A stretch of DNA of 22,703 nucleotides, from positions 1-22,703 of the forward strand of contig JAAYZQ010000439.1 in assembly GCA_012514775.1 (NCBI GenBank). The letters run 5' to 3'. The notes below the pieces were generated by a model. The model searched no databases. It was not told the origin of the DNA and saw only the letters and a program-made list of their open reading frames with translations. Below, piece after piece: positions 1 through 21,595 of this stretch. This DNA is from Anaerolineaceae bacterium (GTDB lineage: Bacteria > Chloroflexota > Anaerolineae > JAAYZQ01). Position 1 is the first letter of the stretch, and each line of letters opens with the position of its first letter. Made by a program: the position numbers and the translations under genes.

Positions 1-1553
1 AGCAGCAAGACAGCCCCCGGCCGGGCCAGTTCCTGGGCCACGGCGCTGTGGGCCAGGAGCGCCAGATTTGGTGCCTCCTGCCATTCATCTTGCTCCGGCT
101 CCAGGCCAATGGGTTTCAGGTGGGTTTCAGTTTCGTCCAGCACCAGCAACCAGGCGTGCTCCACGGCCAGTTGCGACGGTACGTCCCGCAATAGGAGGTC
201 CGCAAGGTCGGCAAAGCGCAGGCTGGTGCTGAGGGCCACGCTCCACCGTCCGAGAGCCTGCTGATAATCGAGCTGGCGCCGGTAGAAGGTGCTGTCGATC
301 GCGTCCTGGATCCTGCTGCGCAAAGGGTTGACGAGGAGGCCGATGATCAGCGCCGACACAAAGAGAACGATGGTGTAGCGACGACTGCCGGTGGCGGCGT
401 CCATGGCATTGGCCAGGGCGCTGACGAGGAGCAGGTAAAAGGCAGCCAACAGGGCCGTCACCAGGCCATAGACGACGCTCCGCTGGACCACCAGGTCGAT
501 GTCCCACATCCGGTAACGAAGGAGGGCAAAGGAGAACGACACGGGCACCGGCAGGATGGCCAGGAGAAGCAAAGCATTCAGCTCCGACGTCTGGCTGCGG
601 GTGCTCGTCAGGACGATGTCGGCGATGCCGGCTGCCATGGCGCAGCCAACGCCCCACATGATCCACTGCACCTGGCGCCTCTGCACCGGCTGGAGCTTGC
701 GGTACGAGAGGGCCATGCTCGCCAGGCCAAAGGCTAGACTCAGGACCAACACGCCAAAGCTGAGCTGATCGCTGACGAACTGGTAGGGCCACACCTCGAA
801 CCGGCCGATGCCTGCTTGCACCGCCCGGTGATAGACGGTCAGGTTCAGCGCCATCAGGAGCAGGGCACCCAGGTAGAGGCCAATCCAACCCTTTTTCCCT
901 CCTGCCAGCCGGTCTCGGGGAAAGACCAGGAAAAAGTGCGCCACCAGCGCGGGTGCCAGGCTAAGGGCCATCAGTTGAACAGCGACCAGGCTGTCCAGGT
1001 CGGTCACCAACAAGGAGAAATAGAGCCCAAGGGCCAGCCCGGCAAGAAAAAACAGCCTGGCTGCCCGGTTGTTGGGCCTGGCATACGCTGTGCAGGCAGT
1101 TCCTACGATGAACACCAACCCCAGGAAGTTGCGGACAAAGAACCGCAGGTCCAGGCCCTTGTTGCGGATGCCCATGGGCGGCAGATCGAGCACCGTACCA
1201 TCGCGGTCTATCGTGAGGGTCACGTAACTGCCCGCCGGATAACGATTGAGGACGTTGCGATAATCCAGGATCGACGATATCGGCGTGCCGTCGAGGGCCA
1301 GGAAGCGATCGCCGACCTCCAGGCCTGTGTCCCGCGCCCCCAGAGGAACGGCCTCCAGGATCAGCGCTGGCAAATCAAAGCGCATGCCATTGACAGGGCC
1401 CAGGCGGCGCGCGTTGGCGCTGCCCCAGATCGACACACATTGGACGGCAAGGGCTGCAAGCGCGAGCACGACGATCAAGGGCCGGACCAGGGATTGCCCC
1501 GGCCGGACCAGCGTCCAGCTCGAAATCCTGGCGGACAGGATGTTATCCTGCAT
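1..1553 (-). CDS. Membrane sensor kinase, 7TM/PDZ-like type (N-terminal part, runs off window)
   Basis: The frame is open from ATG 1553 to base 1, giving 517 residues with no stop, so the C-terminus lies outside the window. A first hydrophobic segment (about residues 24-43) is followed by a PDZ-like extracytoplasmic stretch (about 65-128) containing GLEVGDRFLALDGTPI, then several more membrane segments (about 138-390). The motif RYRMWDIDLVVQRSVVYG near residue 340 is typical of multi-TM sensor histidine kinases of Chloroflexota. A GAF-like region begins near residue 430 (FADLADLLLRDVPSQLAVEHAW). The kinase core itself is not visible, so the histidine kinase call is inferred from family architecture. 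The start overlaps the stop of the upstream kinase gene by 11 bases (1543-1553), which suggests translational coupling. Its own ribosome-binding site is weak. It is the tenth and last visible gene of the minus-strand operon. Confidence 0.8.
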   Translation of the reverse strand, partial: MQDNILSARISSWTLVRPGQSLVRPLIVVLALAALAVQCVSIWGSANARRLGPVNGMRFDLPALILEAVPLGARDTGLEVGDRFLALDGTPISSILDYRNVLNRYPAGSYVTLTIDRDGTVLDLPPMGIRNKGLDLRFFVRNFLGLVFIVGTACTAYARPNNRAARLFFLAGLALGLYFSLLVTDLDSLVAVQLMALSLAPALVAHFFLVFPRDRLAGGKKGWIGLYLGALLLMALNLTVYHRAVQAGIGRFEVWPYQFVSDQLSFGVLVLSLAFGLASMALSYRKLQPVQRRQVQWIMWGVGCAMAAGIADIVLTSTRSQTSELNALLLLAILPVPVSFSFALLRYRMWDIDLVVQRSVVYGLVTALLAAFYLLLVSALANAMDAATGSRRYTIVLFVSALIIGLLVNPLRSRIQDAIDSTFYRRQLDYQQALGRWSVALSTSLRFADLADLLLRDVPSQLAVEHAWLLVLDETETHLKPIGLEPEQDEWQEAPNLALLAHSAVAQELARPGAVLL

Positions 1554-4500
1554 GCTTGTCCGCAATCGCCTTCTTGATCTCATGGATCAGATTTTCGATG
1601 GACAGGGGCTTGGTCAGGTACTGATCGGCCCCCATACCCAACACCTGTACCTTGTCGCGCTCCTTGTCCACGGGACTGGCGGTAATGACGACGATGGGAA
1701 TGGCGCGCGTGGCATCGGCGGCCTTGAGCCGGCGGATGACCTCATAGCCGTCCACGCCCGGCATCCTGATATCCAGGAGCAAGAGATCGGGAATGGACTC
1801 GGCCACGCGCTCCAGGGCTTCGCGCCCGTTTCGGGCCGTGGTGATCTCGTAGCCGTGAAAGCTGAGGGCCTCTTCCATGAGCGACAGGATGTCGAGGTCG
1901 TCGTCCACAACCAGGATGTGGCGCGACTCGACGGACGGCAGGGGAGAGAGCGCCCGATGCACGGACGACAGGAGTGTCTCCCTGCTAAACGGCTTGACGA
2001 TATAGTCCACTGCGCCGAGGGCATAGCCTTTCTCAGGCTCGGAAACGACCGACGTGATGACCACCGGGATGGGCTGCGTCACCGGATGTTCTTTCAGGCG
2101 CTCCAGGACGACAAAGCCGTCCATATCGGGGAGCATGATATCCAGGGCGATCAACTGCGGCTGCTCCTCGCGGGCCAGCCACAGGGCGTCCTCGCCGCTG
2201 CCCGCCAGGACAACGTGGTAGCCATCCGACTCCAGCTCCTTGCGCAGAAGCAGGGCCAGGTCGCGGTCGTCCTCCACGACCAGGATCTTGGGCCGGCGGG
2301 TGAGGGCGACGGGCGCCTCCGAGACCAGAAGGTCGGGCTCGGGCTCGGGCACCTCGTCCGCTGCCAGGGGCAGGCTAAAGCTGAACGTCGAACCCTTCCC
2401 GACCTCGCTGTCGACCGAGATGTCGCCGCCCAGCATCTCGACAAACATCTTGACGATGGATAGGCCCAACCCCGTGCCGCCCGCATCCTGGACCACGGGA
2501 TCGTCCACGCGGTAAAAGCGGTCAAAGATACGGCCCAGGTTGTCGGGCGCAATGCCAATGCCCGTATCTGCGACGTGAACGTAGACCAGGTCGCCTCGCT
2601 CCTCGGCCACGACCGTAACACGGCCGCCCGCGGGCGTATAGTGCCAGGCATTGGCCAGCAGGTTGCTGAGGATCTGGGTCACCCGGGCGGCATCGCCGCG
2701 AACCAGATTCAGCGGCTCCGGCGGGCTCCATTCCAGGTCCAGTCCCTTTTCGCGGTACTGCTCCCGGAACGAGGCGATTGCCTGGCCGATAAGCTCCAGG
2801 ATGTCCAGCGGCTCGATGGTCAGGCGCAGCCGGCCGGTCTCGATGCGAGAGATGTCCAGAATGTCGTTGACCAGGGCCGTCAAGCGATCGGCATTCGACT
2901 TGATGATCTGCAAGAAGTTGCGCTGTGCGTCGGTCAACCCGCCGGCCATGCCCAGGAAGAGCAGGTCGGTATAGCCCTTGATGGAGGTCATGGGCGTGCG
3001 CAGCTCGTGGGACACGGTCGAGATGAACTCGTTCTTGAGGCGTTCCACCTCCGCCTGGCGGCTGACGTCGCGCAGGGCGGCGACGAGGCCCGGCGTTCCA
3101 CCAATCGCCACCACCAGGGGGGCGATGTTGACCGCCAGCACCCGCTTGCCGGCCTCCAGGCGGATACTGCCCCTCTGCTCCACCTCGGCGGCGCTCTCTG
3201 TCTCCAACCTGGCGCGCAGCTCACCATAGAGCGCCTGGGCCAACTCCCGGTCGTCCGCCGTCTCGCCCAGACCCAGCATGTGGCGAAAGTGCTCCCCTTC
3301 CAGGGCGATGGCTGCGAATCCCAGCAGCTCTTCGGCCGCGGGGTTCACCAGCATAACCCGCCCGTTGTGATCGATCACGAGCACACCGTCGGCGATGGAT
3401 TCCAGGATGGCGCGGTTCTTGGCCGCCTCTTCCTGCTGGGCCTGGAGGGTCGAGCCGAGCTGGTCCGCCTGGTCGGTGATAAAGGCATAGAGGTCCGAGT
3501 TGTTGACGGCGATGGCAATCTGCGACGTGGCGGCGCTGACGAGTTGCAGGTGGTCGCTGTTGAAATAGTCCACCTTTTCGTGCCCCAGGATGAGGACACC
3601 GAGGACGTCGCCGCCGCCCAGGGCCAGCGGCGCCGCCACCACCGAGCGAACGTTCGTCTCCTGGCCGGGTTGCTGTACCCAGCGTTCGTCGGCCGTCACG
3701 TCGGCGATGAGCACCGGCTCGCGGTGCTGCAACACCCAGCCGGCCAGACCCTGTCCCCGCCGCCAGTGAGTGGGCTTGCCCTCGCGCGGCAGCCGCAGAT
3801 CGGGGTCGAGGGTGGCCCGTAGCGTCAACTGATCGGTTTTCTGATCCAGGAGCAGAATGGTGCCGTGCTCCAGGCCGAGGGCGCGGGCAAAGAGCTGCAA
3901 AGCCCGCTGCAGAACGCGATCCAGCTCCAGGGTAGCTCCCAGCTCGCGGGTGATGCTGTACAGGGTCTCAACCCGGTCGCGCTCCACGGTGAGCTCGTCG
4001 AGGGCCTTTTCCAGGTCGCGGGTGCGCGCCTCCACCATGCCCTCCAGCTCGCTGCTAAAGTGAACGATCTGTTGGTAGAGTTGGGCGTTGCGCACCGCCA
4101 TCGCCGACTGCGAGGCGACGGTCAGCAGGTAGTTCAGGTGTTCCTCGTTGTACAGGCTTTCCCGGGTGTAGCTCAGCACGGCAATGACGCCCAGGACCCG
4201 GTCCCCGGCAATCATGGGCACTCCCAGCCAGGAGCGGTAGTCACTGGCGTCAGCCTGGTGGCCGGCCTCGGCTGCGCCGGAGGGCAGGAGCAAGGGCTGC
4301 CCGGCGCGCACGACGTGGCCGGCCAGGCCCTCGCCGCCCTTGCGTGGTCCCCAATCCTCGCGGCCCTCCGGGTCGATAACAAAGGGGAAGGTGATCTCGT
4401 CCTTTTCCTCGTCGTACAGGGCGATGTAAAAGTTTGTGGTGTCCATCAAGCGCCCCGTCTGCTCGTACACCGTGCGCAGCAGGGTCGGCAGATCGAGGGT

Positions 4501-7500
4501 TGAGGTCACTGCCTGGGCCATCTGGTTCAAGGCGTCGAGCTCGCGAATGCGACGCTCGCGCTCCTGGAAGAGCCTTGCGTTCTGAATGGCCACGGCGAGC
4601 TGGTCGGCCGCCATCTCCAGGGCTGCCGCGTCCTCCTCGTGAAAGGCCCCGGACTGTTGCGCCTCGGCGTGGAGCACGCCGATGACCGTGCCACCGAGCT
4701 TGATGGGCACCGACAGGCTGCTGAGGCAATCCCATTCGCCTACCGGGACATAGCGCCCATCGATCCGCCGATCCTGTACCACGATGGTCTCGCCGGTCGC
4801 GGCGGCGATGCCCACCACTCCCTGGCCCGGCTCCTGGAAGTAGCCGTCGGGGATGAGCGCTCGAAACTCGCGGTTGGCGGCGGCGACGACCAGCCGCGGC
4901 GGCTCGTGCTCCAGCAGGAACACGGCCACGCGGGCGTAACCCATGTTCTGGTGCAGATCGTGGGCCGTCGTGTCCAGCATCTCGCCGAACTCGAGCTGGG
5001 CCGCCGCCCGCCGGCCGATCTCGTTCAGAAGCGAGAGGCGCACGGCCGCTTGCTGGGTGCCGGCAAAGAGGCGGGCACTTTCCAGGGCCACGGCCGCCTG
5101 GTCAGCCAGGGTCGCCAGGAGCACCTGGTCGGTCTCGACGAGAGCGCCCCGCTCTGCGCAGCCGGCCATCACCACGCCGAGGCACTGCCGGCCGGCGAGG
5201 AGGGGTGCCAGGAGCAGGGAACCCAGGGGCAAGGGCAGAGCAAGGTCGCCGGCTTCCTGTTCCACGTCCGAGATGAGAAGAGGGTGTTGATCCTCGACGA
5301 CCTGCCTTACCAGCTCACCATCCGCGGCCGTGTTCCAGCGCTGCCCACGGGGCAGCAGGGTGCCCGCGGTGGCGACGGGGCGGAAGCTGCCGTCGCCGGC
5401 CTCAGGTTGGTAGACGACGCTCAACGAGCAGTGAAAGAGCTCGATGACGGCCCGGGCCAGCGTGGCAAGGACCGCGGCCGGGTCCAACACCTGTGACAGG
5501 GCGCGACCCACCTGGTTGAGCTGCGCCAGGCTGTCGGCGCGGCGCTGGACGTCAGCATAGAGGTTCGCGTTCTCCACGGCAATGGCCGCCTGGTTGGCAA
5601 AAATCGCCAGGGCATTCAGCGTCTGGCGCGATGGCCGCTGCCCGTCCCTGGGCTCATCGAGGGAAATCTGGCCCAGGAGCCGCCCGCCGGCGCCGCGGAG
5701 GGGGACGAGGAGCATGTCGCGCGGATGCCACTCTCCTTCCCGCCAGGTTTCAGGATCGGTCTCAGGCCTCGACTCCACGAGGTGCAGACCCGCCGCCCAC
5801 TCGGCTCGCCGCTCGAAGGGGAAAAAGTAGCAAGCGCCAACCTGGTACTCCTCGCGGTAAAGGGCCTCGAGGCGCGCGGCCGGCTGCAGGACCTGCTTGA
5901 TCTCCTCGAGCCGATCGAGGGGCAGGCCGGCAGCCGCCACGCGGCGCATCACGGCCGGTACCCGTTCGCAGATGCTGATGAGGACCATGTCAAAGCCTAT
6001 GGTATCCTGGATGGCGTAGGCAATCTCTTCGAGGGTATCCTCCAGGGGGACGTCGGTGCGCAGCTTGCGGCTGACCTCCAGGAGGCTGCTCATCTGCTCG
6101 GTGCGCGCGCTCAGGCTCTTGTTCAGGCGCAGTTGCTCCTGATAGCGCAGGGCATTCCCGATTGCCAGGGCGGCCTGCTCGGCCAGCGACTGGACGAAAC
6201 TCACGTCCATCTCGTCAAAGGCGTCGGGCTGCATGTGACTCAGGTTGATCACACCGACGACGTTGCCCTCGTAAAAGATGGGCACCGCCAGGGCCGAGCG
6301 TGTCCCCACCTTGACGCAAGGCAGGGATGAGTCGGTAGCAGCGTCGGCCACGACGATGGGCTCGCCTCTCTGGAGCACCCGGCCTGGGGGGTTCTCACCC
6401 TCCTGCTCGAGGAGCAGGCTGCGGATGCGGGCCTCTTCATCCGCCGTGTAGCCCAGGGTCACGCCCACCTCGAACTGGCCGGTGCTCATGTCGCGCAGCA
6501 GCACGTTGCCGTGGGTGGCGCCGGCCGTTTGAATTGCGGTGTCGAGGACGACCTGGAGGATGTGATCCGTGGCCAGGGTGGCGTTCAGCTCGCGGGTGAT
6601 GCGCTGCAGGGCGGCCATTTCGTCCACCCGCATCTGTAGCCGCTCGTCGGTCATCTCGTAGAGACGTGCGTTTTCGATGGCCACCGCCGCCTGGTCGGCA
6701 ACGATCTGCAGGATCTCCAGGTCGGCCTCGTCATAGGCGCCCACCTGGTCGGAGGCCAGCTCCAGGGTGCCGATAAAGTCCTCCCCGATCCTCAGGGGCA
6801 GCCCGACGTAGGAGCGCACCGGCGAATCCTCGGCGTCAATCTTGGGCCGGGGCTCCTGCCGTGCCGATACATCAGGGATGAGGAGCACCTGCTGGTGGCG
6901 GGCAATCCACCCGGTAAAGCCCTCGTCCAGGCGGTAGCTGCCGCCGGTGCTGGCCATGTAGCGCGGGTCGCCGGCGCTGGCCCTGGTGACCATAAGCTGG
7001 TCGCCTTCATTCCACAGGCAGATCTCGGCGATGTAATAGCTCACCAGGTCCTGGATGCGGCTCAGAATGAGGGTCAGGGTGCGCCTCAGGTCCAGGTTGG
7101 CGCGGATCTCGCGGCCGATCTCGCCGATGGCCGACAGCATCTGTACCCGCCGCCGCTCCTGCTGGAACATCCGGGCATTCTCCAGGGCGATGGCCGCATG
7201 GTCGGCCAGGTGTTCCAGGAACCCAACGTCTTCCTCGACAAAGGCCTCCGGCCGGGTGCTTTCCAGGTGCAGCACGCCGAGGACCCGAGCCTCGCGCCGG
7301 ATGGGCACGGCCATCTCCGAGCGCGTACCGGGCAGCGCCGGCCGGTGGCCGGGCTCTGCAGCCGCGTCGGCTATGAGGGCCGGCTCGCCGGACCGCAGAA
7401 CGCGCCCCACGAGGCCGTCGTCCAGGGGCCATGACGCCGACTCAAACACCCGAGAGCCATCGCTGGCGGCCTGCCAGAATCGCATCTCCGGTTGGCCACT

Positions 7501-8703
7501 CCCCTCGGCAAGGATGCCCACCGCCCCGCTGTTGGCCCGGCAGGCTTCCACCGCCCGGCGCAGGACCAGGTCGATGATGTGATCGTAGTCCAGGCTGGAG
7601 CCAAGCTCGTGATCGATCTCTTCGACGGTGGCCAGCTCGTGCAGCCGCCGGGCCAGCGCCTCGTCCGTCCTTTCGTAGAGGCGGGCATTCTCGAGGGCAA
7701 TGGCCGCGTGGGCGGCAAATGTGGACAACAGCTCCAGATCCGGCTCCGCAAAGCGCCGGCCATCCCGGCCATTGGCCACCACCAGGACACCGATGGCCTG
7801 TCCGCGGGTGCACAGGGGCACGCAGACAATAGAGCGCTTAAGTCCGTCCGGGAGGTCAGGGGTCGCCGCCCAGCGGGGATCGGTATCCACGTCCTGCACG
7901 AGGAGCCCTTCACCCGACGCAAATGCCTGGCCGGCCAGGCCCTCTCCGGGCGCCAGGCGCCGGCCCGCGAGTCCGCCGGCCGCCTTCCCCTGGACACCGC
8001 GGACGACCAGGCTGCCCGGCCGGGCAGCGTCCTCGGCCAACAGGAGCAAGCCGGCCTCGGCGCCCAGGATCTCGACCGCCTTGGACGTGACCAACTCCGA
8101 TACCGCCTGCAGATCAAGCGTGGAACTCACCGTGCGTCCGACCTCCAGAATGGTGGTGAGCTGCTGCAGGCGTTGCGCGGCATCGCGCCCCACGCGCAAT
8201 TGGCGCGCTTCCATCGACACGAGGTAGTTGATGGCAAAGGTCAGCGCCACGTACACGAGCAAGTTCCCCACGGCGGGAAAGGGGAAAGAATCGCCCTGAA
8301 TCAGCCAGGCCTGGAAAAAGGGCAGGTCAAAAATGAGATACAGCAACAAGTTCGTGCCCAGGGCTGGCCAGAGCTCCAGGCGGGCGGCCAGGACGCCGGC
8401 CAACAGGAACCCCAGGATGGGGGCCGGACCGGAGGCGTTGCCGGTGAGGTAAAAGACCAGGGTAACGAGCGCCACGTCCAGCAGGGTCAGGGCCCAGCGA
8501 GACCAGGCCACATCACGGAAGCGGGGTGCGGCCAAATAGATCAGCGCGTGGACGGCGAGAGCCACACCCAGGATCACGGCCTCCCGGGTCTCGCCCCGCG
8601 CCAGGGCAGACGCGCCCAGAACCGCTACAACGAAACGGTAGAACCACAGCAGGGCGCGTTCTATTCGACTCTCAATCCACACGGAGGGAGCAGAAGTAAC
8701 CAT
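1543..8703 (-). CDS. Hybrid histidine kinase with nine GAF domains, PAS, HisKA, HATPase and two REC domains
   Basis: A giant sensor of about 2386 residues. About six hydrophobic helices occupy residues 15-165. Nine consecutive GAF domains follow (roughly 191-335, 365-508, 533-677, 708-848, 882-1043, 1070-1205, 1235-1372, 1402-1535 and 1588-1732), most ending in a helix of the form IALENARLY. Then come a PAS domain (about 1766-1880), HisKA with phospho-acceptor His1899 in STVSHELRTP, an HATPase domain (N-box NLLANAW, DTGIGI, GTGLGLSI), and two receiver domains with acceptor Asp2188 (LDIMLPDMDG) and Asp2311 (LDIRMPGVDG). All kinase and receiver key residues are intact, so it should autophosphorylate and relay internally. 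I chose ATG 8703 because GGGGAAG sits five bases upstream; a TTG at 8721 would add six residues. The response-regulator gene ends 54 bp upstream, and the next kinase overlaps its stop. Confidence 0.95.
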   Translation of the reverse strand: MVTSAPSVWIESRIERALLWFYRFVVAVLGASALARGETREAVILGVALAVHALIYLAAPRFRDVAWSRWALTLLDVALVTLVFYLTGNASGPAPILGFLLAGVLAARLELWPALGTNLLLYLIFDLPFFQAWLIQGDSFPFPAVGNLLVYVALTFAINYLVSMEARQLRVGRDAAQRLQQLTTILEVGRTVSSTLDLQAVSELVTSKAVEILGAEAGLLLLAEDAARPGSLVVRGVQGKAAGGLAGRRLAPGEGLAGQAFASGEGLLVQDVDTDPRWAATPDLPDGLKRSIVCVPLCTRGQAIGVLVVANGRDGRRFAEPDLELLSTFAAHAAIALENARLYERTDEALARRLHELATVEEIDHELGSSLDYDHIIDLVLRRAVEACRANSGAVGILAEGSGQPEMRFWQAASDGSRVFESASWPLDDGLVGRVLRSGEPALIADAAAEPGHRPALPGTRSEMAVPIRREARVLGVLHLESTRPEAFVEEDVGFLEHLADHAAIALENARMFQQERRRVQMLSAIGEIGREIRANLDLRRTLTLILSRIQDLVSYYIAEICLWNEGDQLMVTRASAGDPRYMASTGGSYRLDEGFTGWIARHQQVLLIPDVSARQEPRPKIDAEDSPVRSYVGLPLRIGEDFIGTLELASDQVGAYDEADLEILQIVADQAAVAIENARLYEMTDERLQMRVDEMAALQRITRELNATLATDHILQVVLDTAIQTAGATHGNVLLRDMSTGQFEVGVTLGYTADEEARIRSLLLEQEGENPPGRVLQRGEPIVVADAATDSSLPCVKVGTRSALAVPIFYEGNVVGVINLSHMQPDAFDEMDVSFVQSLAEQAALAIGNALRYQEQLRLNKSLSARTEQMSSLLEVSRKLRTDVPLEDTLEEIAYAIQDTIGFDMVLISICERVPAVMRRVAAAGLPLDRLEEIKQVLQPAARLEALYREEYQVGACYFFPFERRAEWAAGLHLVESRPETDPETWREGEWHPRDMLLVPLRGAGGRLLGQISLDEPRDGQRPSRQTLNALAIFANQAAIAVENANLYADVQRRADSLAQLNQVGRALSQVLDPAAVLATLARAVIELFHCSLSVVYQPEAGDGSFRPVATAGTLLPRGQRWNTAADGELVRQVVEDQHPLLISDVEQEAGDLALPLPLGSLLLAPLLAGRQCLGVVMAGCAERGALVETDQVLLATLADQAAVALESARLFAGTQQAAVRLSLLNEIGRRAAAQLEFGEMLDTTAHDLHQNMGYARVAVFLLEHEPPRLVVAAANREFRALIPDGYFQEPGQGVVGIAAATGETIVVQDRRIDGRYVPVGEWDCLSSLSVPIKLGGTVIGVLHAEAQQSGAFHEEDAAALEMAADQLAVAIQNARLFQERERRIRELDALNQMAQAVTSTLDLPTLLRTVYEQTGRLMDTTNFYIALYDEEKDEITFPFVIDPEGREDWGPRKGGEGLAGHVVRAGQPLLLPSGAAEAGHQADASDYRSWLGVPMIAGDRVLGVIAVLSYTRESLYNEEHLNYLLTVASQSAMAVRNAQLYQQIVHFSSELEGMVEARTRDLEKALDELTVERDRVETLYSITRELGATLELDRVLQRALQLFARALGLEHGTILLLDQKTDQLTLRATLDPDLRLPREGKPTHWRRGQGLAGWVLQHREPVLIADVTADERWVQQPGQETNVRSVVAAPLALGGGDVLGVLILGHEKVDYFNSDHLQLVSAATSQIAIAVNNSDLYAFITDQADQLGSTLQAQQEEAAKNRAILESIADGVLVIDHNGRVMLVNPAAEELLGFAAIALEGEHFRHMLGLGETADDRELAQALYGELRARLETESAAEVEQRGSIRLEAGKRVLAVNIAPLVVAIGGTPGLVAALRDVSRQAEVERLKNEFISTVSHELRTPMTSIKGYTDLLFLGMAGGLTDAQRNFLQIIKSNADRLTALVNDILDISRIETGRLRLTIEPLDILELIGQAIASFREQYREKGLDLEWSPPEPLNLVRGDAARVTQILSNLLANAWHYTPAGGRVTVVAEERGDLVYVHVADTGIGIAPDNLGRIFDRFYRVDDPVVQDAGGTGLGLSIVKMFVEMLGGDISVDSEVGKGSTFSFSLPLAADEVPEPEPDLLVSEAPVALTRRPKILVVEDDRDLALLLRKELESDGYHVVLAGSGEDALWLAREEQPQLIALDIMLPDMDGFVVLERLKEHPVTQPIPVVITSVVSEPEKGYALGAVDYIVKPFSRETLLSSVHRALSPLPSVESRHILVVDDDLDILSLMEEALSFHGYEITTARNGREALERVAESIPDLLLLDIRMPGVDGYEVIRRLKAADATRAIPIVVITASPVDKERDKVQVLGMGADQYLTKPLSIENLIHEIKKAIADKHAG

Positions 8704-8757
8704 CACGTCTTCCCCAGTCAAGACCGGGCATCCCGGGCCGCAGGATGCCGTCGAGCC

Positions 8758-9654
8758 TTACCCCCCTGGCTGCCCACGGCGCCGGGCCTCGGCAGCCACC
8801 TCGGTGATCTCGCGAATGTCGGCAAAGGGCGCAGTGTCGTGGTGCACCAGTCCAACAGCCAGGGTCATCAAGGGCACCTTCTGCTTGTCCCCCCGGCCGT
8901 CATCCACGAGAATGTAGCCCAGCTCGCGATCTTTGAAATTGTAGAATGTCTTGACCTCGTCATCAAAGCGCTGTATGAGGCGATCCTTCATCCTGGGCGA
9001 CGCCTCCGGGTTGCTGATGATGATAAACTGGTCGCCGCCAATGTGCCCCACAAAATCACTGCCCGTGCCCACCTCGTCGACTACCTCGATGAGGAGCATG
9101 GACGTGAAGCGCAGGACGTCGTCGCCGGCCACAAAGCCGTAGACGTCGTTGAAGCCGTTGATATGGTTGATGCCGATGTAGAGGATCGACCAATCTTTGC
9201 GCCGCATGATCTCGCGCAGTTGCTCTTCGATGAGCTTGCTACTGGGCAGGCCGGTGACGGGGCTGGTGAGGCTCAGCCAGCCGGCGCGACGCAGGGCACC
9301 CTCCACGCGCAGGAGCAGGAGCTGAAGGTCAAATGGCTTGGTGATATAGTCGTCCGCTCCCAGCTCCAGCCCGGCGATCTGGTCGCTGCGCTCATCCCTT
9401 TGTGTCAGGAAAATGATGGGGATATGGCTGGTGCGCAAGTTGTTCCGCAGGCTGCGGCAGACCTCATAGCCATTGATGTCTGGCAGCATGATGTCCAGGA
9501 TGACCAGGTTGGGCAACTTGCGGCGACAGAGATCGAGGGCTTCTTCGCCCCGTGTGGCAATGATCGTTTCGTAGCCTTGTGAGTCAAAGTAGATGCGCAG
9601 CATGTTCGAGATGTCAAAGTCGTCCTCGACAACCAGCAGGCGCCCTTTGCTCAT
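8758..9654 (-). CDS. Response regulator with degenerate GGDEF output domain
   Basis: 298 residues. The N-terminal receiver domain (about 5-120) has the acidic pair in VVEDDFD, phospho-acceptor Asp54 in LDIMLPDING, and the conserved Lys in YITKPFD. The C-terminal domain (about 130-290) is a GGDEF-type fold, but the signature reads GGDQF (206-210). The usual metal-binding DID of diguanylate cyclases is replaced by GIN in IGINHINGFND, and the Arg of the RxxD inhibitory site is a Thr. The ND and GDDVL elements that contact the guanine are kept. It may therefore bind a nucleotide but probably does not make c-di-GMP. A strong ribosome-binding site (AGGAG, five bases from ATG) fixes the start. It lies just upstream of the nine-GAF kinase, its likely phosphate donor. 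Confidence 0.92.
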   Translation of the reverse strand: MSKGRLLVVEDDFDISNMLRIYFDSQGYETIIATRGEEALDLCRRKLPNLVILDIMLPDINGYEVCRSLRNNLRTSHIPIIFLTQRDERSDQIAGLELGADDYITKPFDLQLLLLRVEGALRRAGWLSLTSPVTGLPSSKLIEEQLREIMRRKDWSILYIGINHINGFNDVYGFVAGDDVLRFTSMLLIEVVDEVGTGSDFVGHIGGDQFIIISNPEASPRMKDRLIQRFDDEVKTFYNFKDRELGYILVDDGRGDKQKVPLMTLAVGLVHHDTAPFADIREITEVAAEARRRGQPGG

Positions 9655-9670
9655 GCTCTCCTACCTCCCC

Positions 9671-9726
9671 CCTTGTTCAGGCACAAGGTTTCTGCAATCG
9701 GCGCCCGCCTGCCTGGCCCCGCGGGC
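9671..9726 (-). promoter_or_regulatory. Two hairpins between reductase and response-regulator genes
   Basis: The 91-bp gap at 9655-9745 holds two inverted repeats. CCTTGT (9671-9676) pairs with ACAAGG (9683-9688) around a six-base loop, immediately 5' of the ribosome-binding site of the response regulator in the transcript. GCCCGC (9703-9708) pairs with GCGGGC (9721-9726) around twelve bases. Neither is followed by a U-tract on the minus strand, so a classical terminator is unlikely. They could be processing or translation-control structures at the boundary between the metabolic and two-component parts of the operon. Function is inferred. Confidence 0.35.
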
Positions 9727-9745
9727 ACCGTCCATTGATTCGTCC

Positions 9746-10843
9746 TTACCGTAGGCTATGCACAGGCCAGAGATGGCAGCGCTGCACGTTTCTCCGCACG
9801 CGCTCGATCTGCTCCTCGGGCACAACCCGCTCAAAGCTGCGAAAGCCCGACAGGCGAAAGCCATGCTTGGCCGCCAGGCCCGCTATCTCGTCAACCCTGT
9901 CCGTAGTGATCTCGCGGCCCAGGGTATAGTCCTCGAAACGCCCTTCCATGGCCAGGACCATGGTCTCGGCCATGCAGGCGTAGGCCTTGCCCGGCGGAAA
10001 GCCAAAATCAAAATGAAAGTCGGCAGGGCCGGGCACGTCGACCACGCCCCCTTCGATGACCAGCACGTCGTCCCGGCGCTCGCTCACGCGGCGGGAGACG
10101 TTGCGCGGGCGGGCCACATCGCAGACAACGGCGCCCTCCTTCAAATGCTCAGGCCCGATGATGGGCTCGAGGCTGCTGGTCACCGCCAGGACGATGTCGG
10201 CCCGGGGCAAAAGGTCCATCCCCTGGCCGAGGTCCACCCTGGGCCCCAGTGCCTGGATCTCCTGCCCAACCTGTTCCAGCCGGTCCCGCTGGCGGCCGAT
10301 GAGGATGAGGTGCGGCACAGAGCGGGCCAACAGCCTGGCACAGGCACGTCCGGTGGAGCCGTAGGCGCCCACCACGGCGGCCACGCAGCGTTCGGGATCC
10401 AGGTCGACGCGCCGCGCTGCCGCCAGCGATGCCTCGACGGCCAGGGCCACCGTGTAGCTATTGCCCGTCGTCACCGGGATGGCAAGCTTCCTGGCCACGG
10501 TGATGCCGGCATCGCCCACCACCGAGGTAAAGGCACCCAGGCCCAGGATGCGGGCCCCAAGGCGCTCGGCCAGCCGCCCCGTCTGCACCATCTTGCGATA
10601 GGCCGCCGGCAAACTGACCTGCAGCAGCCGCCGGGGCGTCATGGGGCAGGCCACCAGCCAGCCATCGATCTCCTTGCCCGTCGCTTCGGAGCGGGCGCCC
10701 GTGATGTGCGACAGGAGCACCGGCGGAAAGTAGCTCGAGAAATAGTCGATGATGCCCGGCGGCAGTTTGCCCAGCAGGGGAAACTTGCGGGACACGTCTT
10801 TCTGGGGGTCGATAGGATGGATCATGAAAGCAAAAGTGTTCAT
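9746..10843 (-). CDS. Long-chain acyl-ACP reductase (AAR)-like protein
   Basis: 365 residues, close to the roughly 340 of cyanobacterial acyl-ACP reductase (EC 1.2.1.80), which reduces acyl-ACP or acyl-CoA to fatty aldehyde with NADPH. Shared landmarks occur in family order: DVSRKFPLLGKLP near the N-terminus, LGAFTSVV, TTGNSYTVAL, a Rossmann motif GAYGSTG at 159-165, IEGGVVDVPG, and KAYACMAETMVLAMEG. In the last, Cys290 aligns with the cysteine that carries the acyl thioester in cyanobacterial enzymes, and the protein ends with the family's EIAGLAAKHGF region. Start ATG 10843 is preceded by GGAGAAGGG and matches the family N-terminus; a longer reading frame to 10900 would overlap the previous gene. 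It begins 14 bp after the beta-helix gene. No aldehyde-deformylating oxygenase gene is visible, so alkane formation is not supported here. A general NAD(P)-dependent dehydrogenase is the weaker alternative. Confidence 0.85.
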   Translation of the reverse strand: MNTFAFMIHPIDPQKDVSRKFPLLGKLPPGIIDYFSSYFPPVLLSHITGARSEATGKEIDGWLVACPMTPRRLLQVSLPAAYRKMVQTGRLAERLGARILGLGAFTSVVGDAGITVARKLAIPVTTGNSYTVALAVEASLAAARRVDLDPERCVAAVVGAYGSTGRACARLLARSVPHLILIGRQRDRLEQVGQEIQALGPRVDLGQGMDLLPRADIVLAVTSSLEPIIGPEHLKEGAVVCDVARPRNVSRRVSERRDDVLVIEGGVVDVPGPADFHFDFGFPPGKAYACMAETMVLAMEGRFEDYTLGREITTDRVDEIAGLAAKHGFRLSGFRSFERVVPEEQIERVRRNVQRCHLWPVHSLR

Positions 10844-10857
10844 TGCCACCCTTCTCC

Positions 10858-12105
10858 CTACCTCGGATACAGCCGTGGATGATACTCTGGATGAGCCCAA
10901 CTGTGGTGATCGCTCTCCTCGTAGGAAATGTTGCGGGCAATCACGGCCCGCTGGTCGGTCCGCGCCAGGACGACGTCCGACTCAATCATCCTGGCCGGGT
11001 AGATCGTCAGGTCCGCGCCGATACGACAGTGATGCCCCACGCAGCCACCCAGGACCGTCATGCCGACGTCCTCCAGGCGGCCCCGATGGAAGGTGCGCAG
11101 CGTCTTGGGCAGCAGGTTAAAGTCGGTGAACGTGGTGCCCGCCCCGATGAACGAGTCGCGGCCCACGACGCAGAATTGCAGGCAAGCGTTCTGGGCGACC
11201 ATGGTGTCTTCCATCAGGGTCGACATGAACAGGGACGAACGGAAGGGCAGGTAACATCGGTCGCCGACGACGCTGATGAGCAGCTCGTTGCCGTGCAGGA
11301 TGCTCACGTTGTTGCCGATCACGCAGTTGGAGATGACCACGCCAGCTCCGATATAGACGTTGTCGCCGATGACGGTGGGCCCCTGAATGATAGCGGTGGG
11401 GTCGATCTGCGTGTTGCGGCCGATCTTGACCAGGTGCGAACAGGAAAGGATCTGCCGCCTTTCCAGCAAGGACCGCCAGAAGATCTTGAGCTGATTGCTC
11501 ACCTTGCTCAGGCTGCGCTCCAAGCGCGCCCCTTCGGCCAGGACGCCAAACAGGCAGTTGGCTACGAAAATGTGCACCCAGTTTTCGATGGACAAAAAAG
11601 CCCGCAGGGGAATCTGGAAGACCAGGTCCCCCTTCTCGTTAGACATGTGGGTCGGCACGTGATAGGAGCCGAACTCGTAGGCACCCGTGTCGATGACCAG
11701 GGGCCGGCACATCTCCTCAAGCCCCCGGGGATAGTACCACATATTGGCCACGTAGACGTCCCCCTCGCGCCGGATGCCGCTCTGCAGGGGGAGGGCGTGA
11801 CGGGTCATGACCAGGTCGTCCAGGGCAAAGGCCACGCGGCACGCCTTGCCCAGAGAGCGCGCCCGCGACAGAAAGGTCTGGATGAATGCCTGGTCGAAAA
11901 AGAGGTTGTCGCGGTAGACCAACGTCTCCTCGTGGTCGCCGTTGGGGATCTGCTCGAAAAAATCGACCTCGATCTCGGACTGGCAGTAGGGCTCCAACGT
12001 GTCCTTCTGGTGAAGCCAGAGCGGCTTGTTCAGCACGCGCAGATCGCGCGCCGGCTCGTTGAAGGGTGGTATTTTTCTCTTGTCGCGAATGATAACCTTT
12101 CTCAT
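10858..12105 (-). CDS. Left-handed beta-helix (hexapeptide) transferase-like protein with unrecognised N-terminal domain
   Basis: 415 residues. The C-terminal half (about 226-375) shows hexapeptide-repeat rungs such as IGDNVYIGAGVVI, NCVIGNNVSI and CRIGADLTIYP, typical of acyl- and nucleotidyl-transferases with a left-handed beta-helix. The N-terminal half (about 1-200) has no GxGTR-type nucleotidyltransferase loop. Its position and the phrase YRDNLFFDQAFIQTFLSRAR resemble the degenerate sugar-nucleotidyltransferase halves of GlmU-like proteins, but this is a weak resemblance. The substrate cannot be told from sequence. The gene sits 8 bp after the V4R gene and 14 bp before the acyl-ACP reductase gene, so an acyl-linked or sugar-linked role in that pathway is an inference. 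The ribosome-binding site is weak (GAAG close to the ATG), suggesting coupling to the gene before. Confidence 0.75.
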   Translation of the reverse strand: MRKVIIRDKRKIPPFNEPARDLRVLNKPLWLHQKDTLEPYCQSEIEVDFFEQIPNGDHEETLVYRDNLFFDQAFIQTFLSRARSLGKACRVAFALDDLVMTRHALPLQSGIRREGDVYVANMWYYPRGLEEMCRPLVIDTGAYEFGSYHVPTHMSNEKGDLVFQIPLRAFLSIENWVHIFVANCLFGVLAEGARLERSLSKVSNQLKIFWRSLLERRQILSCSHLVKIGRNTQIDPTAIIQGPTVIGDNVYIGAGVVISNCVIGNNVSILHGNELLISVVGDRCYLPFRSSLFMSTLMEDTMVAQNACLQFCVVGRDSFIGAGTTFTDFNLLPKTLRTFHRGRLEDVGMTVLGGCVGHHCRIGADLTIYPARMIESDVVLARTDQRAVIARNISYEESDHHSWAHPEYHPRLYPR

Positions 12106-12113
12106 CGCTTCAA

Positions 12114-12752
12114 TCAGTCCAGAGGTCTCTTGTCAATCACGTACGTGCAGCTCGGGTCCCCCTTGGCGATGCACAACGTCTCTTCGACACGAATGTTCTT
12201 GCCACCCGTCACCCAGTGGAGGGCCTCTTGGAGCAGCCCGAGACCGGCATGACAGATGGGAACGTCCGACTTGCGCCCCCAGCAGACGGGGCAGCGATCG
12301 ATGTGGTACAGATAATGGTCAAACTGCTCTTCGACGCGCACCACCTGGTCGCTGGTCTTGTTAAAGGTCTCGGCCATGGCGTTCAGGCCCACCTTCATCT
12401 TCATGCTCAGGGGCAACAGGCGAAAGGCCAGGTCAGCGACGCCCAGGACGGCGCCGAAATCCTTCAAGGCATAATAGAGCCCCGCACGGCCCGCGCGCAT
12501 GGCCAGGCCCTTGCCGCCCCGAGGCCCGTACATGTCATCCAGGGCCTGGTTCAGGGCGGCCATCTCCTCAAAGCTCCAGCCCAGATCCAGGTTGTTGGGG
12601 GGATAGTTGTTGATGAGATGGCGCAGCTTGGAGAGGTTTAGGACGGCGTTGACGCCATTCTTGCCCATCACGTCTTCCAGGGACAGGAGCATCATTCTGC
12701 CCATCTTGTTCGGCCAGTAGTATTGGACCGCCCTGTCATTCGTATCTTCCAT
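12114..12752 (-). CDS. V4R-domain protein, putative small-molecule binding
   Basis: 212 residues from ATG 12752, which has GAGGTG nine bases upstream; a GTG at 12764 is a less likely start. The C-terminal part (about 140-210) matches the V4R (4-vinyl reductase) fold seen in BchJ and in hydrocarbon-sensing regulators such as DmpR and XylR. A cysteine/histidine set, Cys154-x-x-Cys157, Cys167-His168, Cys194 and Cys202, could bind a metal. The N-terminal 130 residues are helical and of unknown role, and no DNA-binding domain is evident. V4R domains are thought to bind small hydrophobic ligands. Lying between a hydrolase and an acyl-ACP reductase homologue, this protein could bind or deliver a lipid-derived molecule, which is an inference. 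Confidence 0.8.
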   Translation of the reverse strand: MEDTNDRAVQYYWPNKMGRMMLLSLEDVMGKNGVNAVLNLSKLRHLINNYPPNNLDLGWSFEEMAALNQALDDMYGPRGGKGLAMRAGRAGLYYALKDFGAVLGVADLAFRLLPLSMKMKVGLNAMAETFNKTSDQVVRVEEQFDHYLYHIDRCPVCWGRKSDVPICHAGLGLLQEALHWVTGGKNIRVEETLCIAKGDPSCTYVIDKRPLD

Positions 12753-12779
12753 AATGAATCCCACCTCGAGACGTGCGGT

Positions 12780-13562
12780 TCAACTTCCCAGGAAACTGAG
12801 CAGGATCGAATAGAATTGGTCCGGTTCGTCGAGCATCGGAAAGTGCCTGGATGACGGTAGAGTCTCTACTCGAGAATTGGCCACGTACCGGAACAGCTCC
12901 GCCTGCCGGGGGTCGACGATCTTGTCGCCGCGGCCATAGACGCCCAGGGCCGGCATGCGCAGGGTTCCCAGGCGAGGGCGGAGATCGGTATAGTGCAGCG
13001 AGTGGATGCTCCAAAGGAATGACTCCAGCGTCATCTTGGACAGATCGTGCATCAGCAGCTCGTACCAGTCGTGCCAGTTTGCAGCGATCCATGGTGCCAG
13101 GAGCTTGATGCCCATGCGTAACAGGGCAGGCGAGTTCCAGACGAGAAAGGCTATGGATGGGTAGCCGGCCAGCTTCAGAAACAGGTTCAGAGAGCGACCG
13201 TCGATGGGAGAGCCGACCACCGTCACCTTTTCCACACGATTCGGCTTGTCCAGGGCCAGGTTCAGGGCAACTGTGCCGCCCATGGAATGACCAACCACCG
13301 GCGCCCTGTTGATGCCCATCCTCTCCATGAACTGATCGACCAACCCCACAAAGTCCGAGATGTTATAACTCTCGCGGCGCTTGTCCGACTCTCCAAAGCC
13401 CCAGAAGTCGAGGGCATAAGCCCGGTAGCCGTTTGCCAGTGCCTCCATGGTGCCGAGCCAACAACCCCAGGAGCCCAGCCAGCCATGGAGCAGGATCACT
13501 GGTCGCCCCCGTCCGTAGACCTCGTAGTGTACCACACCCTGTGCGGTAACGATTGAGCTCAA
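12780..13562 (-). CDS. Alpha/beta-fold hydrolase
   Basis: 260 residues with a complete catalytic triad. Nucleophile Ser93 lies in GHSMGG, acid Asp213 in GRGDKIVDP, and His240 in SRHFPM. The oxyanion loop is LLHGWLGSWG near residue 25. A cap region of about 70 residues (130-195) separates the core halves, as in esterases, epoxide hydrolases and haloalkane dehalogenase relatives. There is no signal peptide, so it is cytoplasmic. The start is TTG 13562 with AGGGA six bases upstream; no in-frame ATG lies further out. The gene ends 27 bp before the V4R gene. The substrate is unknown. With an acyl-ACP reductase homologue two genes on, a fatty ester or thioester is a reasonable guess but not shown. 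Confidence 0.9.
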   Translation of the reverse strand: MSSIVTAQGVVHYEVYGRGRPVILLHGWLGSWGCWLGTMEALANGYRAYALDFWGFGESDKRRESYNISDFVGLVDQFMERMGINRAPVVGHSMGGTVALNLALDKPNRVEKVTVVGSPIDGRSLNLFLKLAGYPSIAFLVWNSPALLRMGIKLLAPWIAANWHDWYELLMHDLSKMTLESFLWSIHSLHYTDLRPRLGTLRMPALGVYGRGDKIVDPRQAELFRYVANSRVETLPSSRHFPMLDEPDQFYSILLSFLGS

Positions 13563-13615: not shown

Positions 13616-13987
13616 CTAAATTAACCGGGTAAGATCTTCTGCGGCGCGCCTCATGTCGAGGAAGACCAGGCCCAGCTTGGCGTCCTGGCGCGCCAGGACC
13701 GTCAACACTGCCTCATCGCCCACGGCGCTGAGGATGACATAGCCCTGGGCACCGCGGATGTACACCTGATCCATCACCCCGCGCCCCAGCTCGCCTGCAA
13801 TACGCTCTCCCAGGCTCAACATCGCCGCGCTCATGGCCGAGACGCGGTCCTCTTCCACGTCGGCCGGCAAGGCAGAAGCAATGATCAGGCCATCCACGCT
13901 CACCACGGCAGAAGCCTCAATGTCGGGCGTGGTAACCTGCAAGTTCCTGAGACGAGCCACCATCTGTTCGGTTCGTGACCGTGTCAT
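13616..13987 (-). CDS. Roadblock/LC7-domain protein (MglB-like)
   Basis: 123 residues, one roadblock/LC7 domain spanning almost the whole chain. Features are the beta-strand pair SAVVSVDGLIIASALP, the amphipathic helix SAMSAAMLSLGERIAGEL, and the strands QVYIRGAQGYVILSAVG and AVLTVLARQDAKLGLVFLDM. Roadblock proteins dimerise and act as co-GAPs or scaffolds for MglA-type small GTPases. The GTPase gene ends 43 bp upstream, which fits that partnership. An AGGAGG lies ten bases from ATG 13987; a TTG at 13993 is closer to it and remains possible. It is cytoplasmic, with no signal peptide or membrane segment. Confidence 0.92.
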   Translation of the reverse strand: MTRSRTEQMVARLRNLQVTTPDIEASAVVSVDGLIIASALPADVEEDRVSAMSAAMLSLGERIAGELGRGVMDQVYIRGAQGYVILSAVGDEAVLTVLARQDAKLGLVFLDMRRAAEDLTRLI

Positions 13988-14628: not shown

Positions 14629-15456
14629 CTACAGTCTTCGTATTCTATCGATCAGCTTGTGGATCACCGAACGCTTGACGGCCGGTGGGCGGGATATGAC
14701 CGTCTGCATGGCAGCGGAGGCAGGACGTCTGGGTGCCGGCCCCTCCACCCGGATGATCTCCACCAGGCCGGCTTGCAGCAGCCCGTAGATGATCTTGCGA
14801 ATCTGAAAATCGTCCATGCCAATACGTTGCGCAATTTGCCGGATGGAGTTTCGGGGGTTGATGTACGAGATCACCCGCCATTCCTCGACGCTCAGGTTGA
14901 TGTTGCGGAGCTGCGCCTGGGGGCGATCGGTGAACTTGAGCGCCATGTCCAGGTCTGGCAGCTCATCCTGCAGCCGCTCCCACTCCTTGACCCGCCGGCT
15001 GCCCTCCAGGATAATGTTCTCCAGGTCGATGGGTACGGTGATCACGTCGCCGGGGGGCAATTGGTTTGGCTCGAAATGGAACATGCCATCGGACCAGGTA
15101 AAGAGCCCGTACACTGTCTCCAGGGTATCACCGCGGATGCTGTTGACAATGTCCCTCTGCGAGACGTGCCCGGCGCTGATGAGGAGCATTCCTAGTTCTT
15201 TGTCAGCCGTGTTACCCGACTTGGTGCGGATAATCTTGGCCTGTTCCTCGGTCAGCTTGCCGGCCCGGGCCAGAACATTGGCCAGGTGAAAGTCGCGGCC
15301 ACTCGTCGTCGCGTGCACGAGCTTGCCTTCACGGAAAAAGAGTGTGGTGACCCCGGGTGAGACCTGGATCGTCAAAGCGCCAGTCTTTCGTGCGAGGTGG
15401 ATCAAATTCAAGAGCTGGGTTGTGCTAAAGTCCCTCAGGTTGCCTTTCAGCGCCAT
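14629..15456 (-). CDS. DUF4388 (PATAN-like) protein with C-terminal winged-helix-like region
   Basis: 275 residues. The N-terminal DUF4388 domain (about 1-150) shows the hallmark start LKGNLRDFSTTQLLNLIHLA, then KTGALTIQ, FFREGKLVHA, DKELGMLLISAGHVS and a strand TWSDGMFHFEP. A winged-helix-like stretch lies at about 195-245 (SVEEWRVISYI, SIRQIAQRIGM, GLLQAGLVEI). DUF4388 proteins commonly accompany receivers, roadblock proteins and small GTPases, and are thought to be adaptors. Start ATG 15456 is chosen because AGGA lies nine bases upstream and the DUF4388 domain begins right there. An upstream in-frame ATG at 15570 lies inside the predicted promoter. It is the first gene of the ten-gene unit. 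Confidence 0.9.
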   Translation of the reverse strand: MALKGNLRDFSTTQLLNLIHLARKTGALTIQVSPGVTTLFFREGKLVHATTSGRDFHLANVLARAGKLTEEQAKIIRTKSGNTADKELGMLLISAGHVSQRDIVNSIRGDTLETVYGLFTWSDGMFHFEPNQLPPGDVITVPIDLENIILEGSRRVKEWERLQDELPDLDMALKFTDRPQAQLRNINLSVEEWRVISYINPRNSIRQIAQRIGMDDFQIRKIIYGLLQAGLVEIIRVEGPAPRRPASAAMQTVISRPPAVKRSVIHKLIDRIRRL

Positions 15457-21581: not shown

Positions 21582-21595
21582 GCAGTGGAGCAGAC

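What the first reader, a model, noticed from the sequence alone, without database searches (positions are those of the whole stretch)
9746..13562. Four-gene acyl-ACP reductase module outside its usual cyanobacterial setting
An AAR homologue that keeps the thioester cysteine (Cys290), the GAYGSTG nucleotide loop and the family N-terminus sits directly after a beta-helix transferase-like protein, a Cys-rich V4R protein and an alpha/beta hydrolase, with gaps of 8 to 27 bp. In cyanobacteria AAR works with aldehyde-deformylating oxygenase to make alkanes, and none is visible here. The V4R fold is linked to hydrophobic ligands. Together these suggest a fatty-aldehyde-derived metabolite or signal that is made, hydrolysed and sensed by neighbours. 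I know of no described pathway with this gene set.
Basis: partly seen in the sequence, partly recalled or inferred. Interest (0 to 1): 0.75.

Follow-up and report, generated by a model that had tools for sequence, protein, structure and literature searches.

The report
Aldehyde-making reductase in signalling gene cluster
A group of little-studied bacteria carries an enzyme that probably turns fatty-acid chains into fatty aldehydes, nearly always in company with the same partner protein and set inside a cluster of sensing and switching genes, which suggests a regulated lipid pathway for which I found no description.

Summary
At 9746-13562 (minus strand) lie an alpha/beta hydrolase, a V4R protein, a left-handed beta-helix (LbH) protein and an acyl-ACP-reductase-like protein, with gaps of 27, 8 and 14 bp. 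They are the middle of a larger conserved row: DUF4388, MglA-like GTPase, hydrolase, V4R, LbH, reductase, receiver-GGDEF, giant GAF kinase. In 80 related contigs LbH precedes the reductase in 75 of 76 with room, and the receiver gene follows in 76 of 79. The thioester Cys and its Glu are kept in 79 of 79. It is not a cyanobacterial AAR: 119.7 bits against a cut-off of 449.7, another clade, and aldehyde-deformylating oxygenase over cut-off in 0 of 45 genomes. Across Chloroflexota this reductase form (or its type 1 fusion) goes with LbH even where unlinked: 82 of 82 genomes, against 4 of 79 reductase-negative ones. A sister, tailed fusion form goes instead with wax-ester synthase, adjacent in five genomes. 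Most likely: a regulated acyl-thioester-to-aldehyde pathway with LbH as acyl-handling partner; product unknown. A lipid signal sensed by V4R is possible, untested.

The parts
9746..10843 (-). AAR-like NAD(P)H acyl-thioester reductase, 365 aa (ATG 10843)
   Evidence: PF01488 40.8 bits; NF053554 PigE 191 bits, TIGR04058 119.7 bits, both under cut-off; PDB 4ppm and 6jzq by sequence; C290/E293 79 of 79
10858..12105 (-). LbH protein: degenerate nucleotidyltransferase-like domain plus left-handed beta-helix with an invariant His (H358) in GHHCRIG
12114..12752 (-). V4R protein (ATG 12752; GTG 12764 possible)
12780..13562 (-). alpha/beta hydrolase, TTG start
   Evidence: PF00561 110 bits; S93, D213, H240 invariant in 22 of 22
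13616..13987 (-). Roadblock/LC7 protein (ATG 13987 or TTG 13993); not part of the conserved core
   Evidence: PF03259 66.7 bits; found in 1 of 67 loci with room and twice in L154
14031..14561 (-). small Ras-like GTPase, MglA-type G3
   Evidence: PF03029, PF00071; FGTPGQ 61 of 61, NKQD 61 of 61, one short row dropped
14629..15456 (-). DUF4388 protein (that DUF4388 equals PATAN is recalled)
   Evidence: PF14332 99.2 bits; 54 of 61 loci with room
8758..9654 (-). response regulator with GGDEF domain, motif mostly degenerate in relatives
   Evidence: PF00072, PF00990; receiver D54 77 of 77; GGDNF 58 of 77, GGDQF in the window; 76 of 79 loci
1543..8721 (-). 2392-aa hybrid histidine kinase: 9 GAF stretches, PAS, HisKA, HATPase, two receivers

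Best explanation
The locus encodes a regulated acyl-lipid pathway. Step 1 (well supported): the reductase takes a long acyl chain from ACP or CoA onto C290 and releases it as a fatty aldehyde with NAD(P)H, as AAR, PigE and TamH do. Step 2 (inferred): the LbH protein, a degenerate nucleotidyltransferase fused to an acyltransferase-type beta-helix with an invariant His, works in the same pathway, either acylating an acceptor or joining the reduced chain to it; the hydrolase trims an ester or thioester. Step 3 (inferred): V4R binds a hydrophobic ligand, and with the DUF4388/MglA-type GTPase pair and the kinase/receiver pair switches the pathway or reports its state. The product is probably neither an alkane nor an ordinary wax ester.
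For: C290 and E293 invariant, 79 of 79 plus 13 of 13 more distant rows. Nearest characterised relatives reduce thioesters: AAR (PMC7089970), PigE (PMC8341465), TamH (PMC9594044). LbH upstream in 75 of 76 loci. LbH present in 49 of 49 genomes with the single-domain reductase and 33 of 33 with the type 1 fusion, in which the two genes lie on different contigs or at least 27 kb apart (coordinates), against 0 of 47 and 4 of 32 reductase-negative genomes. A sister fusion form is tied to wax-ester synthase: 14 of 17 genomes of the phylum sample and 21 of 23 fused-form genomes of the class sample, adjacent in five, ORFs overlapping by 4 bp in L124, TIGR02946 389 bits: this family feeds acyl-transfer pathways. 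Hydrolase triad and LbH H358 invariant.
Against: No assay, no known product, no acyl carrier protein or alcohol dehydrogenase among the scanned genes of the window's row. The acyl-binding Y247 of AAR is R in 77 of 79 and Q in 2, so the substrate may differ. LbH chemistry is read from fold and one motif; residues about 221-330 of its model have pLDDT 43-50. Co-occurrence follows descent and is not independent genome by genome. Three near-full-length LbH genes occur without a detected reductase (G407, G410, G433), perhaps in incomplete genomes; only the best 5 or 10 candidates per genome were scored for the reductase. One of 50 fused rows lacks the Cys-x-x-Glu motif searched for. In L151 and L152 the signalling genes and LbH stand without the reductase beside them.
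Confidence: 0.58

Rival explanations
1. Lipid signal: the aldehyde or a derivative is itself a messenger, made by the reductase (and LbH), bound by V4R or the GAF domains, removed by the hydrolase, and read out through the GTPase and receiver proteins.
For: The other genes of the row are signalling genes; V4R fold relatives bind phenols or palmitate (PMC10933270); V4R, LbH, receiver, kinase and hydrolase stay together in L151 and L152 without the reductase beside them.
Against: V4R was not found upstream of LbH in 21 of 72 loci, 20 of which keep LbH and all of which keep the reductase; eight loci keep reductase and receiver but lack hydrolase and GTPase, seven of them with LbH; no ligand known.
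Confidence: 0.2
2. Reductive amination: the aldehyde is passed to an aminotransferase elsewhere to make a fatty amine, as in PigE and TamH.
For: Highest-scoring NCBIfam model is PigE (191 bits); L129 in a Chloroflexota genome is a class III aminotransferase fused to this kind of reductase.
Against: No aminotransferase among the scanned genes of the window's row (the DegT-like ORF at 21596-22699 is on the other strand with other genes); L129's genome G151 lacks LbH and its reductase falls outside the Chloroflexota branch.
Confidence: 0.07
3. The reductase is a dehydrogenase of another substrate and the AAR likeness is only fold.
For: Pfam's one match over cut-off is Shikimate_DH; TIGR04058 cut-off missed by a wide margin; Y247 replaced.
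Against: Near full-length similarity to AAR and PigE including the catalytic Cys and Glu; sister form beside wax-ester synthase.
Confidence: 0.1
4. Mere neighbours: reductase and LbH ride beside the signalling genes without a shared task.
For: The class may simply inherit the row; neighbours differ at the edges.
Against: Reductase-LbH co-occurrence persists where the genes are unlinked.
Confidence: 0.05

Closest known systems
Cyanobacterial acyl-ACP reductase (AAR, TIGR04058; PDB 6JZQ/6JZU/6JZY/6JZZ)
   Same: 99 of 310 aligned positions identical, catalytic Cys, Glu, GxxGxxG loop, R189-equivalent
   Different: Far below the family cut-off, another clade, Y247 replaced by R, no ADO over cut-off, different neighbours
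PigE / TamH thioester-reductase domains (prodigiosin, tambjamine; PDB 4PPM)
   Same: Highest-scoring characterised family; thioester reduction evidenced in the passages read
   Different: Not fused to an aminotransferase; different clade
ST0452-type bifunctional sugar-1-phosphate nucleotidylyltransferase/acetyltransferase and GlmU (for LbH)
   Different: Nucleotide-binding signature not found in 75 of 75
V4R / TRAPPC3 / H-NOX / MopR sensor fold
   Same: V4R Pfam over cut-off, fold matches, cysteine-rich metal-site pattern (weak MopR/PoxR sequence matches, E about 0.1)
   Different: Stand-alone, no fused output domain; no invariant His for haem in 36 rows
MglA/MglB and actinobacterial conservon systems
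   Same: Small GTPase with MglA-type G3, Roadblock and kinase close by in the window; PATAN near some mglA genes reported (PMC4316618)
   Different: Roadblock in 1 of 67 loci with room; DUF4388 instead of CvnC; lipid enzymes in the row
Bacterial wax-ester/TAG synthase (WS/DGAT) pathways
   Same: Sister reductase clade sits beside WS/DGAT in five genomes
   Different: WS/DGAT over cut-off in 1 of 44 genomes that hold only the window's form

Membership tests
AAR (TIGR04058) | Score over curated cut-off 449.7 | tested here: not met
   119.7 bits
AAR (TIGR04058) | Catalytic Cys (C294 in SeAAR) | tested here: met
   C290, 79 of 79
AAR (TIGR04058) | GxxGxxG dinucleotide loop | tested here: met
   G159, G162, G165 79 of 79
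AAR (TIGR04058) | Three Arg at the NADPH phosphate (R189, R193, R314) | tested here: inconclusive
   R184 78 of 79; position 188 is R in 10 of 79, K in 33, A in 21; R310 aligned in the window only
AAR (TIGR04058) | Y247 | tested here: not met
   R in 77 of 79, Q in 2
AAR (TIGR04058) | Groups with cyanobacterial AARs | tested here: not met
   Ten cyanobacterial rows form a 100/100 clade without it
AAR (TIGR04058) | ADO partner (PF11266) | tested here: not met
   0 of 45 genomes over cut-off, 1 of 45 below it (G151); S. elongatus control rings. The window's own genome is not held
AAR (TIGR04058) | NADPH-dependent acyl-ACP reduction | not testable with these tools
   needs assay
PigE/TamH | Fused class III aminotransferase | tested here: not met
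   365-aa single domain
V4R | PF02830 over cut-off | tested here: met
   33.6 bits, cut-off 31
H-NOX | Conserved haem-ligating His | tested here: not met
   No invariant or nearly invariant His in 36 rows; the position was not mapped on a structure
MglA GTPase | GKT, G3 without Asp, NKxD | tested here: met
   61 of 62 sequences used
MglA/MglB pair | Roadblock partner encoded nearby | tested here: inconclusive
   met in the window, L055 and L154; 1 of 67 loci with room
Conservon | CvnA kinase, CvnB, CvnC, CvnD set | tested here: not met
   DUF4388 in place of CvnC, GAF hybrid kinase
GlmU/ST0452 nucleotidyltransferase | GxG[TS]R nucleotide motif | tested here: not met
   0 of 75
Hexapeptide acyltransferase | Catalytic-type His in the beta-helix | tested here: inconclusive
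   H358 in 39 of 39 and 6 of 6 further rows; that it equals the LpxA/LpxD His is recalled, not aligned

The most novel reading that the evidence does not exclude
A bacterial lipid-signalling circuit: the reductase and LbH make a fatty-aldehyde-derived messenger that a TRAPPC3-like V4R protein binds next to a Ras-like GTPase and its DUF4388 partner, with the hydrolase ending the signal; that is, a prokaryotic GTPase switch gated by a dedicated acyl-derived ligand.
Probability: 0.15. Interest if true: 0.88.

Novelty: new variant of a known kind. Interest (0 to 1): 0.6.

Why it matters
It shows that thioester reductases of the AAR/PigE kind are common in Chloroflexota: by my reading, 29 of 400 sampled genomes have the window's form and 36 a fused form; 80 of 199 genomes of its class have a match at E up to 1e-40. 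They split into forms with two different partners (LbH or wax-ester synthase). That gives a testable route to the reduced lipids of this poorly cultured phylum and places a lipid enzyme inside a GTPase and two-component row whose output is unknown. The sister form beside wax-ester synthase is a concrete candidate for the aldehyde or alcohol step of wax esters in phototrophic Chloroflexota (Roseiflexus wax esters are named as biomarkers in PMC12542760, passages).

Tried and rejected
Alkane pathway: rejected, ADO over cut-off in 0 of 45 genomes; one match under cut-off, 21.5 bits, in G151. Wax-ester pathway for this locus: rejected, WS/DGAT over cut-off in 0 of 29 (one under it, G198) and 1 of 15 (G417) genomes with only this reductase form. 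Active nucleotidyltransferase in LbH: rejected on the missing motif. Haem sensor: no conserved His. A MopR-like site C171/E195/C198/C206 fits the Anaerolineae V4Rs (weak alignment, E about 0.1; the identity of the MopR ligands is recalled), but in L151 and L152 C171 is G and E195 is Q while C158, C161, C198 and C206 stay, so a four-Cys site as in Thorarchaeal TRAPPC3 is likelier; L071 in turn lacks C158 and C161. Active diguanylate cyclase: unlikely, motif GGDNF in 58 of 77. In-situ replacement of the reductase in L055 (five other proteins 77-84% identical to the window's, reductase 57%): the tree puts L055 in the window's own small clade (98/92) on a long branch, the larger tree puts it at the base of the fusion forms (96/70, long branches), so fast change or replacement is undecided. 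A phytol-kinase-like ORF upstream of LbH in L018, L028, L051 and L060 had no Pfam match in the two copies scanned; the name is a guess from memory. Foldseek and VIA lists for LbH rest on a model with a poor beta-helix. Literature: searches listed no paper whose title or abstract start describes this gene set (two listed none); PMC8756737 lists DUF4388, GTPase, hydrolase and glmU-like neighbours in Anaerolinea thermolimosa in a table of NirS surroundings, without discussion in the passages I saw. PMC4400912 held none of the wax-ester enzyme terms I looked for; the passages of PMC12542760 name no such gene.
Full report
What is there. On the minus strand of an Anaerolineae-type window (the 99% reductase match P0001 is named Anaerolineae) the four ORFs of the finding lie at 12780-13562 (alpha/beta hydrolase), 12114-12752 (V4R), 10858-12105 (LbH) and 9746-10843 (reductase), with 27, 8 and 14 bp between them. 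They continue an operon-like row that starts with DUF4388 (15456), a small GTPase (14561) and a Roadblock protein (13987), and goes on to a receiver-GGDEF protein (9654) and a 2392-aa hybrid kinase with nine GAF stretches (8721). The window's own whole genome is not held.

Conservation of the row. The genome-contig scan gave 294 encoding stretches of which the best 80 are held; most record titles name Anaerolineae, Anaerolineales, Thermoflexales or Chloroflexi. Counting only loci with room on the contig: LbH 75 of 76, receiver-GGDEF 76 of 79, hydrolase 62 of 70, GTPase 59 of 67, DUF4388 54 of 61, V4R 51 of 72, Roadblock 1 of 67 (for Roadblock a phmmer search also found L055 alone among these loci). 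Eight loci (L018, L028, L032, L037, L045, L050, L056, L060) lack hydrolase and GTPase; all but L037 keep LbH. V4R was not found upstream of LbH in 21; in L053, L059 and L080 one lies elsewhere on the stretch. So the four-gene order is real, but the tightest unit is LbH-reductase-receiver.

The reductase. Pfam's one match over cut-off is Shikimate_DH; NCBIfam gives PigE 191 bits and AAR 119.7 bits, both far under their cut-offs. By sequence the nearest solved structures are PigE (4ppm, 4e-36) and AAR (6jzq, 7e-28). Against SeAAR 99 of 310 aligned positions are identical. The thioester Cys (C290), the Glu beside it (E293) and the glycine loop are invariant in 79 of 79 (one truncated row of the 80 dropped), and Cys and Glu in 13 of 13 more distant Chloroflexota rows; of the residues named in PMC7089970 (abstract, passages and one part of the text read), R189 is kept in 78 of 79, R193 varies, Y247 is R (77 of 79) or Q (2). 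PigE (PMC8341465, first of two parts read) and TamH (PMC9594044, passages) show what such domains do: reduce an acyl thioester to an aldehyde. A tree of 49 rows puts the single-domain and fused Chloroflexota forms together with modest support (89/77), apart from ten cyanobacterial AARs (100/100) and from two PigE rows; the aminotransferase fusion L129 and the short L131, also from Chloroflexota, fall outside, and several branches are long. ADO (PF11266) passes cut-off in 0 of 45 reductase-bearing genomes, with one match under it, while the S. elongatus control rings. Verdict: works like an AAR, is not a member of the cyanobacterial AAR family.

Forms and partners. In 400 Chloroflexota genomes I count 29 with the single-domain form and 36 with a longer fused form; four more are odd (G220, G151, G257, G324), and the other matches of the 285 are weak (my reading, where at most 5 candidates per genome were scored). 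In the fused form 300 or more unassigned residues (no Pfam or NCBIfam match in the proteins scanned) precede the reductase. A second tree (64 rows) puts the fused forms, with the unfused L128 protein, in one clade (100/100), in which 26 rows with a C-terminal tail of 49-93 residues form a clade of their own (99/99; type 2); the other 24 fused rows have tails of 8-26 and are called type 1 here without being shown to be a clade; the Cys-x-x-Glu motif was found in 49 of the 50 fused rows. LbH (E at most 1e-30): single-domain genomes 29 of 29 and 20 of 20; genomes with type 1, with or without type 2, 33 of 33 (24 of them placed by tree, the rest by match pattern); genomes with only type 2, 0 of 3 and 2 of 18 in the class sample (eight of these 18 were placed as type 2, the rest go by match pattern; one of the two with LbH, G554, also has a shorter second reductase match); reductase-negative 0 of 47 and 4 of 32 of the same class, three near full length and one partial (16 of these 32 were printed as negative, the other 16 are inferred from its numbering). 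Of the odd four, G220 and G324 have LbH, G151 and G257 do not. In the 33 type 1 genomes reductase and LbH lie on different contigs or at least 27 kb apart (coordinates). WS/DGAT (PF03007 over cut-off): single-domain-only 0 of 29 and 1 of 15; type 1 only 0 of 19, type 2 bearing 14 of 17; in the class 16 of 18 fused-only and 5 of 5 with both single-domain and fused forms; the odd four 0 of 4; reductase-negative 2 of 28 and 0 of 16. The 14 named control genomes did not ring for PF03007, so that search has no positive control of its own. In five genomes (G204, G100, G236, G381, G386) the WS/DGAT match lies directly behind the type 2 reductase (coordinates); in L124 the two ORFs overlap by 4 bp and the second is a WS/DGAT by TIGR02946 (389 bits, cut-off 310). 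Photosynthetic reaction-centre genes occur in 26 of 40 genomes tested, among them 14 of the 17 type 2 bearers, including these five. Thus one family, two partners, each of acyltransferase kind by fold or family. The type 2 rule came and was put to 13 further genomes (noted): present in 5 of 8 expected, absent in 5 of 5 expected. The type 1-LbH rule was my expectation before but was not noted beforehand.

Where LbH stands without the reductase. In L151 and L152 (genomes with both fused types) V4R, LbH, receiver-GGDEF, GAF kinase and a hydrolase stand in a row without reductase; in L153 LbH stands beside receiver-GGDEF; in L154 DUF4388, GTPase, two Roadblock copies, V4R, LbH and hydrolase stand together while the reductase is on another contig. 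So the signalling genes and LbH may be the older or more stable core and the reductase its metabolic companion. Descent within the phylum means these counts are not independent.

How it probably works, and what is shown. Shown: genes, order, catalytic residues, clade, absence of ADO over cut-off, co-occurrence. Inferred: aldehyde formation, a shared pathway with LbH, ligand binding by V4R, control by GTPase and kinase. Not shown: any substrate, product or phenotype.

Known or new. My full-text searches (open-licence papers only) listed no account of this set. A gene table in PMC8756737 (Appendix 2, part 1) lists DUF4388, GTPase, hydrolase and glmU-like neighbours in Anaerolinea thermolimosa. 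PATAN near some MglA-type GTPases has been reported; that DUF4388 is PATAN is recalled. I rate it a new variant of a known kind.

Noticed in passing
L124:7213-9435 and 9432-10802; also G100, G236, G381, G386: Tailed fusion reductase directly followed by a wax-ester/TAG synthase match, ORFs overlapping 4 bp in L124: a candidate wax-ester operon in phototrophic Chloroflexota.
   Followed up: partly
L119:562-1500, L122 and other fused forms: The 300-residue or longer N-terminal part of the fused reductases matches no Pfam or NCBIfam model in the proteins scanned.
   Followed up: no
L129:7018-9567: Class III aminotransferase fused to the reductase in a Chloroflexota genome, with the domain order reported for TamH.
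   Followed up: partly
L055:10001-11065: Reductase only 57% identical to the window's although the five other proteins compared are 77-84% identical; fast change or replacement undecided.
   Followed up: partly
window 8758-9654 and its relatives: GGDEF motif reads GGDNF in 58 of 77: a conserved but probably non-cyclase domain.
   Followed up: yes
L018:4850-5551, L028:3569-4270, L051, L060: A 233-aa membrane-protein-like ORF, lipid-kinase-like by eye only, stands upstream of LbH in four loci that lack hydrolase and GTPase or are cut there.
   Followed up: partly
L139-L143 (G343, G118): The row ends with a small receiver and a second hydrolase, then genes that look like thiamine transport (names by eye).
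   Followed up: no
window 3-1541: Incomplete minus-strand membrane protein with a weak PDZ match (below cut-off), cut by the window edge.
   Followed up: no
window 19813-22699: Plus-strand oxidoreductase, hexapeptide transferase and DegT-like aminotransferase ORFs, like a sugar-modification set (names by eye, not scanned); the first two also lie upstream of the row in L055.
   Followed up: no
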